A stretch of 12,172 nucleotides of DNA from the NCBI GenBank assembly GCA_012514775.1, contig JAAYZQ010000583.1:1-12172 (forward strand), in the 5' to 3' direction. The notes beneath the pieces were generated by a model. That model was not told the origin of the DNA and did not search any database. It worked only from the letters and a program-made list of their open reading frames with translations. Below are positions 5,668 to 12,172 of the stretch, one piece after another. Source of the stretch: Anaerolineaceae bacterium (GTDB lineage: Bacteria > Chloroflexota > Anaerolineae > JAAYZQ01). The translations under genes and the position numbers were made by a program. Each line of letters opens with the position of its first letter. The stretch's first letter is position 1.

Positions 5668-6819
5668 CTACAGCCTGCCCAGGTTGCCGGTCCGGAACTC
5701 GTCCCATCCGTAGCGCAGCGGCGTCCACCACTTCTCGCGGCCGATGCAGCGAAAGTAGGGTGGCTGCATGGCTACGATGAGGTCGCCGATCTTGTAGCGC
5801 GCCAGGATGGGCGTCGACACGACGAGGCTGCCCATCTCGCCGCGTCGCATTTCGTGGAGCATCTTGATGCCGGAGCGGGTCTGGACTTCGAAGAAGAACA
5901 GGTCATAGTTCGGCACCCAGGCCCGTTTTTCGTCCCGCTGCTGCCCGAACATCCCCTCCGTGGCACCATAGATCTCGCGGATGGCAGCCGGCCCGTAAAG
6001 GGCCTGGAGGACGGGGACGTAGGCGGTGTTGATGGCGGGCACGCTGCCCAGGGTCATGATCTGCGTCTTCCACAGATCCCTGGGATAGGCGCGGTGGGTG
6101 CGGTGCACGTAGCGGCCAAAGTGGACCGCCGTGGTGGCCACCCCCCCGACCAGCGTGACGTTTTCGTCCTTGCACTTTTGATAGGCCAGCTCGAAACGGG
6201 CATCCCAATCGGCGGCCGTCTTGCCGCCGCCCAGGGCATCGATCTCGGCCTGGGATGGCACGGAACGGATGGGCGTCGCGGCCGAAACGTGCCGGGTATA
6301 GATGCCCGAGCTGTAACCGTACTCTACTTCCCGGTCGCCGACGCGCACGGTGCCGACGATGGATGGAAAGTTGAGGTTAAGATTCACGCCCTGAAAGAGG
6401 TCCATGCGCCCGGTGGTGGCCACATAGTTCATCATCGCCCGCCCGGCGCTGACCCGCATGCGCAGGTCGGTGGGGGTCATGGGGATGAATTTCGATTCGC
6501 CCTTCGTGGTGCCACGGGTGATGGCCCAGCCAATGGGCTCCTCGTTGAGGAGCAGGCCGACGTCGCCGGCCATCACGCGCTCCATGAGGGGCTTGTAGCC
6601 GGCGTCGTAGGTGGTGACGGGAAATGCCCGGCGATAGTCCGCCAGGCTGCCCACCTGGGCCGCGCCATGCTGCCGGCCGTATTCGGTCTGGGCATAGGTC
6701 TGCAGGTAACGATGCAAGACGGCTTCCTGGGCCCGTTGCGGATCGGCAATGGACTCGTTCCAGGGCTGCAAGAAGCCCTTCAGCCTGTCGACCGCCGACG
6801 CTCTTTCCTGGCTAACCAT
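5668..6819 (-). CDS. GH3-fold adenylating protein, short form
   Basis: A 383-residue member of the GH3 (auxin-responsive promoter family) branch of the acyl-adenylate-forming superfamily, which activates a carboxylate with ATP and usually joins it to an amine. ATP-binding motif I is TRGTTKGESK (101-110), motif II YGATEG (284-289) and motif III YKIGD (342-346). The usual first residues of motif I (S/T-S-G-T-T) read T-R-G-T-T here. GH3 proteins are typically about 500-600 residues; this one ends 37 residues after motif III and so lacks the mobile C-terminal domain that completes the second half-reaction. Its stop codon lies 3 nt from the repeat at 5619-5664. The ATG complemented at 6817-6819 is chosen because AAGGAGG lies 7 nt upstream; the longer frame to 6936 runs through the promoter. 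It may be a natural compact form or a gene truncated at its 3' end. No substrate can be inferred. Confidence 0.85.
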   Translation of the reverse strand: MVSQERASAVDRLKGFLQPWNESIADPQRAQEAVLHRYLQTYAQTEYGRQHGAAQVGSLADYRRAFPVTTYDAGYKPLMERVMAGDVGLLLNEEPIGWAITRGTTKGESKFIPMTPTDLRMRVSAGRAMMNYVATTGRMDLFQGVNLNLNFPSIVGTVRVGDREVEYGYSSGIYTRHVSAATPIRSVPSQAEIDALGGGKTAADWDARFELAYQKCKDENVTLVGGVATTAVHFGRYVHRTHRAYPRDLWKTQIMTLGSVPAINTAYVPVLQALYGPAAIREIYGATEGMFGQQRDEKRAWVPNYDLFFFEVQTRSGIKMLHEMRRGEMGSLVVSTPILARYKIGDLIVAMQPPYFRCIGREKWWTPLRYGWDEFRTGNLGRL

Positions 6820-6827
6820 GGTTCTGC

Positions 6828-6840
6828 CTCCTTGAAGGAG
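6828..6840 (-). promoter_or_regulatory. Palindrome covering the GH3 ribosome-binding site
   Basis: The sequence CTCCTT-G-AAGGAG is a near-perfect palindrome in which one arm is the Shine-Dalgarno sequence of the GH3 gene and the other an anti-Shine-Dalgarno. In the transcript, CUCC and GGAG could pair around a 5-nt loop and hide the ribosome site. The stem is short, so any effect on translation is uncertain; it could instead be an operator half-site pair. Confidence 0.35.
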
Positions 6841-6841
6841 C

Positions 6842-6868
6842 TCGACATTGGAGCAGGCCAAGTATAAC
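6842..6868 (+). promoter_or_regulatory. Candidate promoter of the exonuclease-WYL gene
   Basis: TCGACA at 6842-6847 and TATAAC at 6863-6868 resemble -35 and -10 boxes, but the spacer is only 15 nt. The -10 overlaps that of the opposite-strand GH3 promoter, sharing bases 6863-6866. It is the only promoter-like pair I see before this operon. Confidence 0.4.
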
Positions 6869-6889
6869 ATAGAGGATCGAGGCAGGCAA
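6861..6889 (-). promoter_or_regulatory. Promoter of the GH3-like gene
   Basis: On the minus strand TTGCCT (complement of 6884-6889), a 17-nt spacer and TATACT (complement of 6861-6866) form a good sigma70 promoter with an extended -10 (TGTTATACT). The leader to the ATG at 6819 would be about 35 nt and includes the palindrome over the ribosome site. Confidence 0.7.
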
Positions 6890-6941
6890 ACCGGCATCCG
6901 AGATCGTGTGCCTCGGGCGCCGGGACGTGGCCGCAAACGAG

Positions 6942-7778
6942 ATGATCTATCGATGTGATCCCGACCAGCCCCTGGCGGAAACCAACTTTGCCGTGTTCGA
7001 CGTCGAGACGACCGGCCTGAGCCCGGCCTATGGCGACCGGGTGTGCGAAGTGGCCTGTGTGCGCCTCACGGGCGAGCTGGAAGTGGAGCGGTTCGAATCC
7101 TTTGTCGATCCGGGCAGGTCCCTCTCGCTCGGGGCGGCGGCGGTGAACGGCATCACGCCCGACATGTTGGCAGGCGCGCCTCCCTTCTCGGACGTGGCCG
7201 GGCGCCTCCTGTCGCTTCTCGACGGTGCCGTGCTGGTGGCCCACAACGCCCCCTTTGACCTGGGCTTCCTGGCCATGGAGCTCGAGATCGCGCACGTACC
7301 CCCACCCGAGGGCGAGGTGTTGGACACCTTGACCCTGGCGCGGCGGGCCTTTCGCTTTCCGCGCAACGGCCTGCAGGCACTGGCCCGCGCCCTCCAGATC
7401 GAGGCCGCCACGGCCCACCGGGCCCTGGGTGACGCCTGCACGACGGCCGAGGTGCTGGCGCGCATCCTGTGGGAGGTGGAGGCGCGCTGGGGTGTGCGCA
7501 CCCTGGGCCAGCTCCTGGACTTTCAGGGGGGCTCTATCCCTTATCCCTTCCCTCAGTCGCTGCCGCTACCCCCGCCCATCGCCGAGGCTCTGCAGTGTAA
7601 TGGGCAGGTGCGTATGCGTTACGTCGACGCCCGAGGGCAGGAAACCGTCCGCCTGGTGCGCCCCCTCCACGTGCGCGAGCAGCGAGGATACCTCTACCTG
7701 GTGGCCCACTGCCACCGGGCGGGCGAGTTGCGCACTTTCCGCCTCGATCGCGTGGTCGAGCTGGCCGCGGAGGACTGA
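6942..7778 (+). CDS. DnaQ-like 3'-5' exonuclease fused to a C-terminal WYL domain
   Basis: A 278-residue two-domain protein. Residues about 15-178 are a DEDDh exonuclease of the DNA polymerase III epsilon type: D20 and E22 in FDVETTG, the VNGIT motif at 68-72, D106 in HNAPFD, and H159 and D164 in AHRALGDA, so all five catalytic residues are present. Such enzymes remove nucleotides from 3' ends of DNA or RNA with two metal ions. After a linker (about 180-210), residues about 212-274 match the WYL domain: a strand ending MRYVDA, RPLHV, then GYLYLVAHC in place of the W-Y-L signature, and R264-x-F-R-L-D-R at the end. WYL domains are regulator modules thought to bind nucleic acids or nucleotides, often in defence and DNA-damage regulators. 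No helix-turn-helix is present. The start is uncertain: ATG 6942 is favoured, though GTG codons at 6906 and 6927 are in frame and the ribosome site is weak. The next gene follows after 3 nt. Confidence 0.88.
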   Translation: MIYRCDPDQPLAETNFAVFDVETTGLSPAYGDRVCEVACVRLTGELEVERFESFVDPGRSLSLGAAAVNGITPDMLAGAPPFSDVAGRLLSLLDGAVLVAHNAPFDLGFLAMELEIAHVPPPEGEVLDTLTLARRAFRFPRNGLQALARALQIEAATAHRALGDACTTAEVLARILWEVEARWGVRTLGQLLDFQGGSIPYPFPQSLPLPPPIAEALQCNGQVRMRYVDARGQETVRLVRPLHVREQRGYLYLVAHCHRAGELRTFRLDRVVELAAED

Positions 7779-8581: not shown

Positions 8582-9523
8582 ATGGACGGCGAGGCAACCC
8601 GAGAGTACGGATCGGTGATGGTCGGCGGCGAGGCGGTGCAGTTCGAGTTGCGCACCGTCGATGCTCGCTCGGAGGCGCGGCGCGCCCACGACGCCCGGGC
8701 CGGCCGGCCCGCGGGCAACGTCCTGATATTGGTCCCCGGACACGGCCAGACCGTGGACGGACCCCGGAACCTGCTGACAACCGCCGCCGAGCTGTCCTGC
8801 TCGGGCATCGCCTGCTGCATCGATCCGGTGCCCGCCCGGGGCGGGGATCACGCCGAGGCAAAGGCGATCGTCGCCATTGCCCGGGAGACCATCGCCTGCC
8901 TGTTCCCCGGGGAAATGCAGCACGGCGTGCCCATCCAGGCCACGGTCGTGGGCTGGTCCCACGGTGGGGGCGAGGCGCTGCGGGCCGCCAGCCAGGACCC
9001 GGACCTGTTCCCCCAGTATCTTGGGCTCTGCCCCGCCGGCCTCGTGGAGCGGCGCCCCGCGGAGCTGGTGTGCAGCTTTTTTCAGGAGTCCATGCGCGTC
9101 GCGGGCCGCAACCTCGTGTGGGGGAACATGCGCTGTATCCTCACCATCCTGCGCGTGGGCGCAAACCTCCTCAAGGGGCTCCTGTGGGATCTGGCGCGCA
9201 GCCGCTCTTTGCGGCGGCTCATCGCCGACGTGCGCTGGGCGTGCAGGCGGGTTCCGGGCCCCACCTTTGGCTACACAGGCGAGGTCGTACTCCTCTGGGC
9301 TGAGGGCGACAGCGTGGTCCGCTGGCGCGACGCGTTCCAGGGGTGCAATTGCGGCCAGGAGATCGAGCGCTCGCTGCCCGACTTCTCCCGGGACAACTTT
9401 CCCCTCGCCGGCCGCGTGGAGGTGCTGATCCTGCCGGGCGATCACCTCTCACCCGAGGTGGACAGCGCCTCGTTCTTGACGGCGGGCCTGGGCCTTTTGG
9501 GACAACTCCGCCAGCCTCAGTGA
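8582..9523 (+). CDS. Alpha/beta hydrolase
   Basis: A 313-residue soluble alpha/beta-hydrolase-fold protein with no signal peptide. The oxyanion-side motif is PGHGQT (52-57, HG at 54-55). The nucleophile elbow is G-W-S-H-G at 124-128 with S126 as the catalytic serine. The acid is probably D243 in WAEGDSVV and the histidine H288 in PGDHLSPE. A helical, basic cap segment lies at about 165-225 between the elbow and the acid. This order matches esterases, lipases and related hydrolases, but the substrate is not readable. The start is taken as ATG 8582; a GTG at 8576 is also possible, with AGAAGG upstream. The open frame back to 8345 crosses the promoter and the hairpin repeat and is not coding. 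The gene is alone on its strand here and its 3' end overlaps the opposite-strand phosphatase gene by 7 bp, with no terminator between. Confidence 0.85.
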   Translation: MDGEATREYGSVMVGGEAVQFELRTVDARSEARRAHDARAGRPAGNVLILVPGHGQTVDGPRNLLTTAAELSCSGIACCIDPVPARGGDHAEAKAIVAIARETIACLFPGEMQHGVPIQATVVGWSHGGGEALRAASQDPDLFPQYLGLCPAGLVERRPAELVCSFFQESMRVAGRNLVWGNMRCILTILRVGANLLKGLLWDLARSRSLRRLIADVRWACRRVPGPTFGYTGEVVLLWAEGDSVVRWRDAFQGCNCGQEIERSLPDFSRDNFPLAGRVEVLILPGDHLSPEVDSASFLTAGLGLLGQLRQPQ

Positions 9524-11772
9524 ACCTCGACGGCTAACATGGTCATATCGTCAAACTGGTCGGCCGTGCCCTGGTGGGCCGCCAGCTCGGCAAAGAGGGC
9601 GTCGCACAGGTCAGCGGTCGCCACCCCGGCCCTGGCGCGAAGTTGAGCGATGAGGCGCTCGCGGCCAAAGGCCCGGCCGTCGGGCGAGATGGCGTCGGTC
9701 AGCCCGTCGGTGTACAGCACCAGCCGATCCCCCGGCTGCAAATCGATGGCCTCCTGCGAGAGATAGAGCTCGTCCATGTCGGGAAAGCCCAGGGGCAGCC
9801 CTTCACCTCGCAACTGGTGCACCTCTCCCGCCCGCAAGAGGATGGGCAGATCGTGGCCGGCGCGAACGTAGGTCAGGCGCCGGCTGGCCGTGTCCACCAC
9901 GCCGTAAAAGACGGTGATAAACTTGCTGGACCGGCCGAGCTCCTGGAGGAGCCGGTGCACGGTGTGCAGCACCTCCTCGGGTGGAGGCGGGGAACCCGCG
10001 CCGGCCGTGCGCTGGCGGCGCGCCTCGGCACGGATCAGGCTGTGCACCTGGGCCATGTACAGGGCCGCCGCCATGCCCTTGTCCGACACGTCGCCGATGA
10101 CCAGGCCAAAACGGTCGGCGTCCAGGAGGATGACGTCGTAAAAGTCGCCGCCCACCCAACGGGCCGGCTCGCTGCGAGCGGCAAAGGTATAGCCCGGCAC
10201 CAGGGGAAAGACCCGGGGAAGCACGCTCTGCTGTACCTGCCGGGCCAGCTCCATCTCGCGCTCCAGGCGCTCCTTCTGCACCAGCTCCGCCTGGGCAGCC
10301 TCCAGTTGGCGGACCTTGTCGCGGAGGGCCTCGGTCAGCCCGGCGCGCTGGATGGCCATGGCCGCCTGGTTGCCAAAGGCGCGCAGCAGGGCCACCTCGC
10401 CGGGGGCAAAGCGCGCTTTCTGGCTGGTGTGGACGATCATCAGGCCCACCGGCTGGCCTTCCGCCACAAAGGGCACGCGCAGGGCGGCACGCAGGGCATC
10501 GGCCGTCACGTCCGTGGGCTGCCTGGGCACGCCCGGGGGAAATCCCGAACAGGGCTCCGGCTCGTTGCCCACCTGCGAGCCAAACACCGACTGCGCCTCC
10601 AGCGACATGCCGACGAGAGAGGGATCCCAGCCGGTCACGGCCAGCACCTCAGCCGAGCCGGACTCGGGCCGCAAGAAGTAGAGGATGGCGCGGTCGGCGC
10701 CGCACAATTGCGAGGCGTTGCGGCACAGCCGGCCGGCCAGCTCTGACAGGTTGGTGGAGGCAATGAGCGCCTGGCCGATGCTCTCCAGGGAGATCAGGGC
10801 CTCGGTGCGCTGCTGGAGCACCCGGTTGGCCGCTTCCAGCTCGGCCAGCCTGCGCTCCAGGGCCACCTTGGCCTCGAGGGTCGCCTGCTCGCTGGCGCGC
10901 AAAAGGCGATAGGTGCGACGCAGCCGGCCCGCCTCCAGGCGCTGCACGTCGCCGGGGGGCAGGGCTCCCCGGGCGGCGAGGCCCAGGACGTAGGCCGCGA
11001 TGGGCAGGCCACTGGGCTGCTCTTCCACGGCTCCTGCCCCGGGATCCGGATGCCAGATGTCAAAGGCAGTCACCTCGCCTTCGCGCCCCGTTCCCCTACA
11101 GCGGGCGCAGCCCTGCTCCCGGAAATAGGTACCCTCACGCAGCAGCGGCTCGAAATCGGAGAAGCTCTGGCACCAGCCCTCCAATTCCTCGGGATCCGGC
11201 TGGGCCGGCACCTTGCAGTGGGAACAGAGGGTGGGCAGGCGCTCCACGGCCACGACCCACGTCAGGGCCGACAGGAGCTCTCGCGACACGCCCAGGTCGA
11301 GGAGAAATCGGGCGACTTCTGCGCCGCGAAAGACCGTGTCGACCTGGGTCAGGACCCGCAGCCCTCCGGCCGCCGCGTGGAGGGCAGCCGCCGCGCTGCT
11401 GGCATCCAGCCGCTCCACAAGGAGCAGATCCGGCCCGCGTGCCGCCGCCTCGGCAATGGCCTCGGCATGTGACTTGCCGGGCGGCCACGAGGCAAACTGC
11501 ACCCGGCGCCGTAGGTCGCGGGGCAAACGCTGCGACGGATCGCCGGTGACCAGCAAGGCCTGCTGGCGGGGACGGGCGTCGAGCATCTCGCGCATCAGGA
11601 TCCGCCAGATGGTAGCCCGGCCGCTGGGCAACAGCCCGGCCTCGCCCCGGGGCAGGACGGCAGTCCGCGGGTCGAGGCCCGCAACCACGACGAGCCCCGG
11701 CCCTCCGGCCGCGATCTGGGCGATGAGGCCCTCGACCTGCGGCAGGTGGGTCAGGTCATCCAGCTTGAGCAT
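9517..11772 (-). CDS. SpoIIE-type protein phosphatase with degenerate GspE/PilB-like N terminus and GAF domain
   Basis: A 751-residue multi-domain signalling protein. Residues about 10-245 resemble the C-terminal ATPase domain of type II secretion / type IV pilus motors: a Walker-A-like PSGRAT (49-54, with R for K), a Walker-B-like PDLLLVERLD (114-123), LTQVDT where the His box is usual, and the tetracysteine site C183/C186 (LCSHCK) and C222/C225 (CARCRGTG). The motif changes suggest it no longer hydrolyses ATP. A predicted coiled coil (about 290-328) leads to a GAF sensor domain (about 330-477), another coiled coil (about 480-515), and a PPM/SpoIIE serine phosphatase domain (about 525-751). 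Metal ligands of the last are D543 and D546 (GGDFYD), D561 (GDVSDKG), D689 (YTDGLTD) and D741/D742 (DDMTM), all intact. It probably dephosphorylates an anti-sigma-factor antagonist. The start is ATG 11772, with GTG 11784 as an alternative; both lie inside the upstream gene, implying coupling. Confidence 0.9.
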   Translation of the reverse strand: MLKLDDLTHLPQVEGLIAQIAAGGPGLVVVAGLDPRTAVLPRGEAGLLPSGRATIWRILMREMLDARPRQQALLVTGDPSQRLPRDLRRRVQFASWPPGKSHAEAIAEAAARGPDLLLVERLDASSAAAALHAAAGGLRVLTQVDTVFRGAEVARFLLDLGVSRELLSALTWVVAVERLPTLCSHCKVPAQPDPEELEGWCQSFSDFEPLLREGTYFREQGCARCRGTGREGEVTAFDIWHPDPGAGAVEEQPSGLPIAAYVLGLAARGALPPGDVQRLEAGRLRRTYRLLRASEQATLEAKVALERRLAELEAANRVLQQRTEALISLESIGQALIASTNLSELAGRLCRNASQLCGADRAILYFLRPESGSAEVLAVTGWDPSLVGMSLEAQSVFGSQVGNEPEPCSGFPPGVPRQPTDVTADALRAALRVPFVAEGQPVGLMIVHTSQKARFAPGEVALLRAFGNQAAMAIQRAGLTEALRDKVRQLEAAQAELVQKERLEREMELARQVQQSVLPRVFPLVPGYTFAARSEPARWVGGDFYDVILLDADRFGLVIGDVSDKGMAAALYMAQVHSLIRAEARRQRTAGAGSPPPPEEVLHTVHRLLQELGRSSKFITVFYGVVDTASRRLTYVRAGHDLPILLRAGEVHQLRGEGLPLGFPDMDELYLSQEAIDLQPGDRLVLYTDGLTDAISPDGRAFGRERLIAQLRARAGVATADLCDALFAELAAHQGTADQFDDMTMLAVEVH

Positions 11773-12172
11773 CGCCGGCGACACCCCACAGGGGCTTGAC
11801 GGAGGCTATCCAGTCTTCCATGCCATCGGGGCTTTCGGGAAACGCCTCGTAGTGCTCCCGGATGCGGCCAGCCCGGCCCGAGACCTCGAGGAGCCGGCCC
11901 AGGCTGGCCCGGGAGAAGCGGCGCGTGGCCACTCCCCAGAAAAGCTTGGCGCCCATGGCCAGCGTCTTGGCCAGGTCCATCTCGGTGGCATAGTGAAGGT
12001 TCATCTGCTCGAAATCGCTGCTGCCAAAGATCAGGTCCTGTTGAAACAAGTAGTCCACCTCGGCCCGCGACAGCTCGGCGGCGGCGGGGAGCTGGACAAA
12101 CATGGAGGCAAACCTGGCGCCCTGATCCCGAAAGTAGCGGACGTTGTAGGGCCACAGGGCGGCGCGGCTCGC
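11756..12172 (-). CDS. Unrecognised protein, 3' part only (runs off the window)
   Basis: The frame is open from the right edge to a stop at 11756-11758, giving the last 138 residues of a protein whose start is outside the window; the ATG at 12103 lies in mid-protein, since the codons above it also read as plausible protein (ending WPYNVRYFRDQGARFAS). The visible part is mixed charged and hydrophobic, probably helical, with no transmembrane segment, signal peptide or motif that I recognise. Notable stretches are VDYLFQQDLIFGSSDFEQMN and WIASVKPLWG near the C terminus. It overlaps the phosphatase start by 17 bp, so the two are probably one operon and the product may act in the same signalling pathway. 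Confidence 0.7.
   Translation of the reverse strand, partial: ASRAALWPYNVRYFRDQGARFASMFVQLPAAAELSRAEVDYLFQQDLIFGSSDFEQMNLHYATEMDLAKTLAMGAKLFWGVATRRFSRASLGRLLEVSGRAGRIREHYEAFPESPDGMEDWIASVKPLWGVAGDAQAG

What the first reader, a model, noticed from the sequence alone, without database searches (positions are those of the whole stretch)
9517..11772. Pilus/secretion-ATPase remnant fused to GAF and SpoIIE phosphatase
The first 245 residues keep the overall plan of a GspE/PilB motor (P-loop-like, Walker-B-like, LCxxC and CxxC zinc site, in the right order and spacing) but the P-loop lysine, the G-E of Walker B and the His box are altered, while the phosphatase metal site is intact. A dead motor domain as sensory or docking input to a partner-switching phosphatase is not an architecture I know as standard; it could report on pilus or secretion machinery state.
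Basis: partly seen in the sequence, partly recalled or inferred. Interest (0 to 1): 0.72.

Follow-up and report, generated by a model that had tools for sequence, protein, structure and literature searches.

The report
Dead pilus-motor domain driving a phosphatase
In some Chloroflexota bacteria, a pilus/secretion motor domain that has lost residues needed to burn ATP has been kept as the front end of a signalling phosphatase; this looks like a conserved sensor module and not a broken gene, but what it senses is unknown.

The parts
9517..11772 (-). Whole gene: GspE/PilB-CTD-like domain, coiled coil, GAF, coiled coil, SpoIIE/PP2C phosphatase, 751 aa
10924..11772 (-). Residues 1-283: complete GspE/PilB C-terminal domain (RecA-like core plus zinc subdomain), no N1/N2 domains
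11611..11631 (-). Degenerate P-loop LPSGRAT (residues 48-54); Arg52 in place of the Lys; preceded by an insertion of variable length after Gly32
   Evidence: R in 81 of 86, Q 4, K 1; G51 in 86 of 86; G32-S50 spacing varies
11407..11427 (-). Degenerate Walker B (residues 116-122, LLLVERL); GE replaced mostly by (D/E)-(R/K/Q)
   Evidence: catalytic Glu column is Glu in 3 of 86; an acidic residue stands one place earlier in 84 of 86; HMMER, MAFFT and hhalign place the columns alike
11335..11349 (-). His-box equivalent (residues 142-146, TQVDT): His replaced by Asp145, preceded by near-invariant Gln143
   Evidence: D 85 of 86, Q 85 of 86, T146 81 of 86
11215..11226 (-). Zinc-site cysteines C183/C186
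   Evidence: 86 of 86
11098..11109 (-). Zinc-site cysteines C222/C225
   Evidence: 86 of 86
10759..10950 (-). Long helix 275-338, heptad coiled coil linking motor-like domain to GAF; hydrophobic positions 284, 291, 298, 305, 312, 319, 326
   Evidence: helix in model; D275-L326 is 51 residues in 85 of 85, L326-C357 is 31 in 84 and 37 in P0042; hydrophobic periodicity peak at 3.5
10351..10752 (-). GAF domain, residues 341-474
   Evidence: PF01590 45.5 bits, cut-off 22.4
10222..10404 (-). Long helix 457-517 linking GAF to phosphatase
   Evidence: helix in model; L462-E501 is 39 residues in 79 of 85 and 25 in 6 of 85
9520..10218 (-). SpoIIE/PP2C phosphatase, residues 519-751, metal-binding Asp residues intact
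11756..12172 (-). Upstream neighbour, cut by the window end; resembles the C-terminal part of a digeranylgeranylglycerophospholipid reductase; overlaps the start of the fusion gene by 17 bases
   Evidence: NF041080, 35.2 bits, whole-protein cut-off 580

Best explanation
This is an RsbU-like (SpoIIE-type PP2C) serine/threonine phosphatase of Chloroflexota whose input domain is an exapted, hydrolysis-dead C-terminal domain of a GspE/PilB motor. Shown by sequence or model: the five-part order, the stereotyped change of the motor's catalytic residues, the kept zinc site, the intact phosphatase metal site, and linkers whose length is fixed or changes almost only by heptads. Inferred: ATP hydrolysis is lost; the protein is a parallel dimer; the motor-like domain and the GAF domain each bind a ligand or partner; the change is passed through the two coiled coils and dimerises or aligns the PP2C switch helices, as reported for RsbU; and the active phosphatase removes phosphate from a STAS-domain antagonist, so releasing a partner (a sigma factor or other target) from an RsbW-like kinase. 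The motor-like domain works as a regulated scaffold or sensor and not as an engine.
For: Fold and family of each domain. Stereotyped degenerate site and kept zinc site in 86 proteins. Purifying selection on the N-domain: dN/dS about 0.16 to 0.27 in the four pairs computed. Near-rigid linkers: D275-L326 51 residues in 85 of 85; L462-E501 39 in 79 and 25 in 6, a difference of 14; periodicity 3.5 in the first linker. Phosphatase Asps intact. All 86 proteins carry SpoIIE in the precomputed Pfam column. All 20 fusion-bearing genomes encode HATPase_c_2 and STAS matches over cut-off (STAS counts include long transporter-like frames). Coiled-coil-gated activation of RsbU and its proposed generality: PMC12143880 (abstract and passages seen).
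Against: No phosphatase assay, partner or signal is known. No STAS or kinase gene is a recurrent neighbour: outside the fusion no gene cluster recurs in more than 3 of 21 loci, and none of the 33 recurrent clusters scanned is STAS or HATPase. The Walker B change is less clear than the others: an acidic residue stands one place before the catalytic column in 84 of 86, and a one-residue deletion nearby leaves some room for another alignment. One member keeps the P-loop Lys. One row (P0042) has six extra residues between L326 and C357, which is not a heptad step. The second linker's hydrophobic periodicity peaks at 3.4, not 3.5. The whole-protein model has pTM 0.47, so relative domain placement is not defined, and only monomers were modelled.
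Confidence: 0.72

Rival explanations
1. The dead motor domain docks on a pilus, type II secretion or Tad machine (for example by competing with the true motor at the platform) and reports its state to the phosphatase.
For: The domain is a real relative of PilB/GspE with an intact zinc site. 18 of 20 fusion genomes have a platform (T2SSF) match and 17 of 20 have a T2SSE match of 100 bits or more besides the fusion. M. xanthus PilB is reported to affect exopolysaccharide output through its active site, apart from pilus assembly (PMC11656802 section 13 read).
Against: 299 of 396 class genomes have T2SSF over cut-off, so 18 of 20 is not enriched (Fisher p 0.18). G069 (contigs over 1 Mb) and G115 have neither yet carry the fusion. 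No T2SSF or over-cut-off T2SSE match lies on any fusion contig, though several of these contigs are short (4.5-25 kb). The N1/N2 domains are absent. Completeness values were not available, so single absences are weak.
Confidence: 0.1
2. The degenerate pocket still binds a nucleotide or another small ligand without hydrolysing it, so the domain is an intracellular ligand (for example adenylate or nucleotide second-messenger) sensor. This is a sharper version of the best explanation.
For: Positions homologous to the ATP site are more conserved than the domain average although several residues are changed (homology-fixed set 3.42 against 2.47 bits, reached by 12 of 20000 random sets; six substituted positions only 3.29, reached by 358 of 20000). 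An acidic residue is kept next to the catalytic Glu column in 84 of 86. Lys-to-Arg P-loop mutants of RecA-fold proteins can bind ATP without hydrolysis (recalled, not looked up).
Against: An insertion of variable length sits inside the P-loop between Gly32 and Ser50 and is modelled with low confidence, so a normal phosphate-binding loop is unlikely. Two of the six substituted positions (53, 121) are not conserved. No ligand was tested. Conservation could reflect folding.
Confidence: 0.3
3. A decaying remnant: the motor-like domain is an evolutionary leftover without function.
For: The P-loop Lys and the His box are lost and the Walker B Glu is displaced or lost. N-domain dN/dS is higher than that of the phosphatase in all four pairs.
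Against: Invariant zinc cysteines, conserved replacement residues, dN/dS well below 1 and a fixed D275-L326 length in 85 of 85 rows.
Confidence: 0.03

Closest known systems
PilB/PilF/GspE assembly ATPases (Pfam T2SSE, PF00437)
   Different: No N1/N2 domains; P-loop Lys and His box replaced in nearly all members and no Glu at the catalytic column in 83 of 86; fused to GAF and SpoIIE; no T2SSE or T2SSF gene on the fusion contigs
RsbU / RsbP / SiaA / RssB family SpoIIE-type PP2C phosphatases
   Same: PP2C domain with metal Asps, N-terminal sensor joined by a helical linker
   Different: The sensor is a dead motor domain plus GAF; no RsbV/RsbW-like gene among the recurrent neighbours
GAF-SpoIIE and receiver-like GAF-SpoIIE phosphatases
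   Same: GAF then helical linker then PP2C; one such protein lies beside the fusion in G115
   Different: No motor-like domain
MshEN/GSPII N-terminal domain proteins
   Same: Also built from parts of the GspE/PilB motor (PMC12943098, passages seen)
   Different: They use the N-terminal c-di-GMP domain; here it is the C-terminal ATPase domain, and PF05157 was not found

Membership tests
GspE/PilB motor ATPases | CTD fold (RecA-like core plus zinc subdomain) | tested here: met
GspE/PilB motor ATPases | Four zinc-site cysteines in two pairs | tested here: met
   all four Cys columns 86 of 86; first-pair spacing is three in 84 of 85 rows, shorter in P0047
GspE/PilB motor ATPases | Walker A GxxxxGK(S/T) | tested here: not met
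   Lys in 1 of 86; Arg in the window protein; loop interrupted by an insertion
GspE/PilB motor ATPases | Catalytic Glu of Walker B | tested here: not met
   Glu in 3 of 86; Arg in the window protein; same columns by HMMER and hhalign; caveat: acidic residue one place earlier in 84 of 86
GspE/PilB motor ATPases | His box | tested here: not met
   Asp in 85 of 86, Glu in 1
GspE/PilB motor ATPases | N2 domain needed for the canonical hexamer | tested here: not met
   First aligned residues are 1 of the model with 128 of PilF 5oiu and 233 of EpsE 1p9r; no PF05157
GspE/PilB motor ATPases | ATP hydrolysis | not testable with these tools
   needs an assay
SpoIIE/RsbU-type PP2C phosphatases | PP2C fold and Pfam SpoIIE | tested here: met
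SpoIIE/RsbU-type PP2C phosphatases | Metal-binding Asp residues | tested here: met
   D543, D546 and D561 in 85 of 85; TDG Asp in 83 with 2 gaps; D741 and D742 at 90% or more of 52 rows
SpoIIE/RsbU-type PP2C phosphatases | Helical linker of conserved register between sensor and PP2C | tested here: met
   with the P0042 exception between L326 and C357
SpoIIE/RsbU-type PP2C phosphatases | Phosphatase activity on a STAS antagonist | not testable with these tools
   needs an assay
Partner-switching system | RsbW-like kinase and STAS antagonist in the genome | tested here: met
   20 of 20 genomes over cut-off for PF13581 and PF01740; not shown for the window's own genome, which is not held
Partner-switching system | Kinase or antagonist gene linked to the phosphatase gene | tested here: inconclusive
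   HATPase_c_2 gene about 3 kb from the fusion in G115 and about 10 kb in G069, each beside another SpoIIE gene; STAS and HATPase_c_2 matches about 23-27 kb away on the fusion contig of G248; the match list is cut; none of 33 recurrent neighbour clusters is of these families

The most novel reading that the evidence does not exclude
The ATP site of a secretion/pilus motor was rebuilt into a non-hydrolysing nucleotide or small-ligand receptor, with an expanded P-loop, Arg for Lys, Asp for His and a new near-invariant Gln. This pseudo-motor now gates a partner-switching phosphatase, making a new class of intracellular sensor for serine/threonine signalling in Chloroflexota.
Probability: 0.3. Interest if true: 0.75.

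Novelty: new variant of a known kind. Interest (0 to 1): 0.6.

Why it matters
Sensor domains of SpoIIE-type phosphatases are the open end of bacterial partner switching. Here a motor ATPase domain was recruited as such a sensor, changed its catalytic residues in a stereotyped way and kept its fold and zinc site. It gives a clean, testable case of a pseudo-ATPase as a signalling input. It also gives a natural experiment for the coiled-coil-register model of phosphatase control, since a length change of exactly two heptads is seen in the second linker.

Tried and rejected
Pilus-reporter reading: tested by gene neighbourhood and genome content and not supported. Single-genome frame-error reading: rejected.

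Stand-alone or other-output versions of the domain: the alignment search, whose length range is about 137-437 aa, gave 9 short proteins. Read by eye they look like truncations, several ending in tails that do not continue the family sequence; they were not checked against DNA. In 400 phylum genomes the alignment matched 55: 4 strongly (277-319 bits, open frames 740-889 aa; two of the four, G002 and G069, were already known) and the rest at 59 bits or less, most in frames of ordinary motor length. Proteins longer than about 1300 aa were outside the length range, and all three protein searches scored only about 8000 candidates each, so 86 is a lower bound. The 86 are all distinct, but five pairs are 90% or more identical, so they are not 86 independent lineages.

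The first pocket-conservation test used positions partly chosen after seeing conservation. It was replaced by a set fixed by homology. A substitution-only set gave a weaker result (358 of 20000).

dN/dS: five pairs were set up, and one (L118/L124) was dropped because the GAF anchor was not found; the most diverged pair has dS 1.6, near saturation.

One of the five comparison motors (P0053) itself has Gln in the His box.

Papers: searches listed no paper, by title and abstract start, that describes this fusion. They cover open-licence PMC text only, so this is weak evidence of absence.

Full report
What is there. The reported stretch codes on the minus strand, from ATG at 11772 to a stop at 9517, for 751 residues. 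Pfam finds T2SSE (111-241, 32.4 bits against a cut-off of 24.9), GAF (341-474) and SpoIIE (552-750, 164 bits). NCBIfam gives PilB, TfpB and GspE models within residues 103-239, far below their whole-protein cut-offs, as expected for a partial relative. Sequence search of solved structures gives Thermus PilF at 1e-10 over residues 99-237, including both CxxC pairs. Profile-profile comparison with six PilB/GspE proteins gives probability 99.1, E 4.8e-19.

A stereotyped, altered site. The N-domain search found 51 fusion proteins, and a second search from a divergent member found 35 more. The 86 are distinct, with five pairs at 90% identity or more. All 86 carry SpoIIE in the precomputed Pfam column, and 72 of 86 carry T2SSE there. 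Only 6 of the 86 show an organism name, all Chloroflexi or Anaerolineae. In an alignment with five motor proteins the P-loop Lys is Arg in 81 of 86 (Gln 4, Lys 1), the catalytic Glu column is Glu in 3 of 86, and the His box is Asp in 85 of 86. A Gln two residues before it is present in 85 of 86, and each of the four zinc cysteines in 86 of 86. HMMER and hhalign place the Walker B columns the same way, but an acidic residue stands one place earlier in 84 of 86, so loss of the Glu function is less certain than loss of the Lys and His. The P-loop is interrupted by an insertion of variable length. A set of ten positions fixed by homology to the ATP site is more conserved than the domain average (3.42 against 2.47 bits; 12 of 20000 random sets reach it). 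Six substituted positions alone average 3.29 bits (358 of 20000), two of them poorly conserved. dN/dS in the N-domain is about 0.2, 0.2, 0.16 and 0.27 in four pairs, higher than in the phosphatase but well below 1. I take this as exaptation, not decay.

Linkers. The helix from the motor domain to the GAF has 51 residues between D275 and L326 in 85 of 85 rows; from L326 to C357 there are 31 residues in 84 rows and 37 in one (P0042). The helix from GAF to phosphatase has 39 residues between L462 and E501 in 79 and 25 in 6, a difference of 14 residues or two heptads. Hydrophobic residues in the first helix are common at 284, 291, 298, 305, 312, 319 and 326, with a periodicity peak at 3.5; the second helix peaks at 3.4. 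This fits signalling coiled coils. Work on RsbU reports that a coiled-coil linker dimerises and activates the phosphatase and argues that this is general (PMC12143880, abstract and passages). The metal-site Asps are intact.

Distribution and context. In 396 genomes of the class of G002 (a Chloroflexi MAG), 36 had a match. 17 are fusions in single frames of 717-907 aa; G001 is split over two contig ends; G166 is broken between two frames in its assembly; G295 has only a short fragment; and 16 are weak matches (43.3 bits or less), mostly in frames of ordinary motor length. Loci fetched from 19 fusion genomes (20 stretches) plus the window share no gene cluster beyond the fusion in more than 3 of 21 loci. 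Representatives of all 33 clusters seen in two or three loci were scanned against Pfam (9, 24). They are metabolic enzymes, transporters, regulators and the like, four without a family, and none is a pilus, secretion-motor, STAS or HATPase family. Of the 20 genomes, 17 have a T2SSE match of 100 bits or more besides the fusion and 18 have T2SSF. G001, G069 and G115 lack the former; G069 and G115 also lack the latter. In the class as a whole 299 of 396 have T2SSF over cut-off, so there is no significant enrichment (p 0.18). Two sub-cut-off T2SSE matches (about 21 bits) do lie on the fusion contigs of G069 and G115, tens of kilobases away, in open frames of 868 and 885 aa whose identity was not followed. 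Completeness values were not available for these genomes; G069 has contigs over 1 Mb.

Partner switching. HATPase_c_2 and STAS matches over cut-off occur in 20 of 20 of these genomes. Among the listed matches, an RsbW-like gene lies near the fusion in G115 (about 3 kb) and G069 (about 10 kb), each beside a second GAF-SpoIIE phosphatase with a weak receiver match. In G248 a STAS and HATPase_c_2 group lies about 23-27 kb away on the same contig. The substrate therefore remains inferred.

Precedent. A review states that in Myxococcus xanthus PilB Walker A and B mutants alter exopolysaccharide production, suggesting that substrate-free PilB signals (PMC11656802, section 13). That makes a hydrolysis-dead PilB domain as a signalling module plausible, but it does not show it here.

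Verdict. The pilus-state part is not supported. It is a new variant of the SpoIIE phosphatase kind; I found no description in the searches listed under Tried and rejected.

Noticed in passing
window 6906-7778 (+): A 290-aa protein joining an exonuclease domain (RNase_T, 119 bits) to a WYL domain (60.8 bits), an uncommon pairing to my knowledge.
   Followed up: no
window 11756-12172 (-): The upstream gene overlaps the fusion start by 17 bases, suggesting translational coupling to a geranylgeranyl-reductase-like protein; no such family appeared among the recurrent neighbour clusters of other loci.
   Followed up: partly
window 5668-6936 (-): GH3 N-terminal domain protein (83.9 bits), a family best known for plant acyl-amido synthetases (recalled).
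   Followed up: no
P0047 (921 aa): One fusion carries an extra C-terminal GNAT acetyltransferase domain and an altered first cysteine pair spacing.
   Followed up: partly
P0053 (635 aa): A different combination: a GAF domain in front of a PilB-type ATPase with an intact P-loop but Gln in the His box.
   Followed up: no
L124:4191-8070 and L132:1356-3672: An RsbW-like kinase gene beside a GAF-SpoIIE phosphatase gene with a weak receiver match, close to the fusion in G115 and about 10 kb from it in G069.
   Followed up: partly
P0018, P0025, P0026, P0041, P0043, P0049: Six members have the GAF-phosphatase linker shorter by exactly 14 residues, a natural two-heptad difference.
   Followed up: partly
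P0089: At least one member keeps the P-loop Lys (SGKT in P0089), a possible intermediate or reversal.
   Followed up: no
L126 (G166:C28): The G166 copy of the fusion lies in two frames (147 and 452 aa) in its assembly, either a frameshift in the genome or an assembly error.
   Followed up: no
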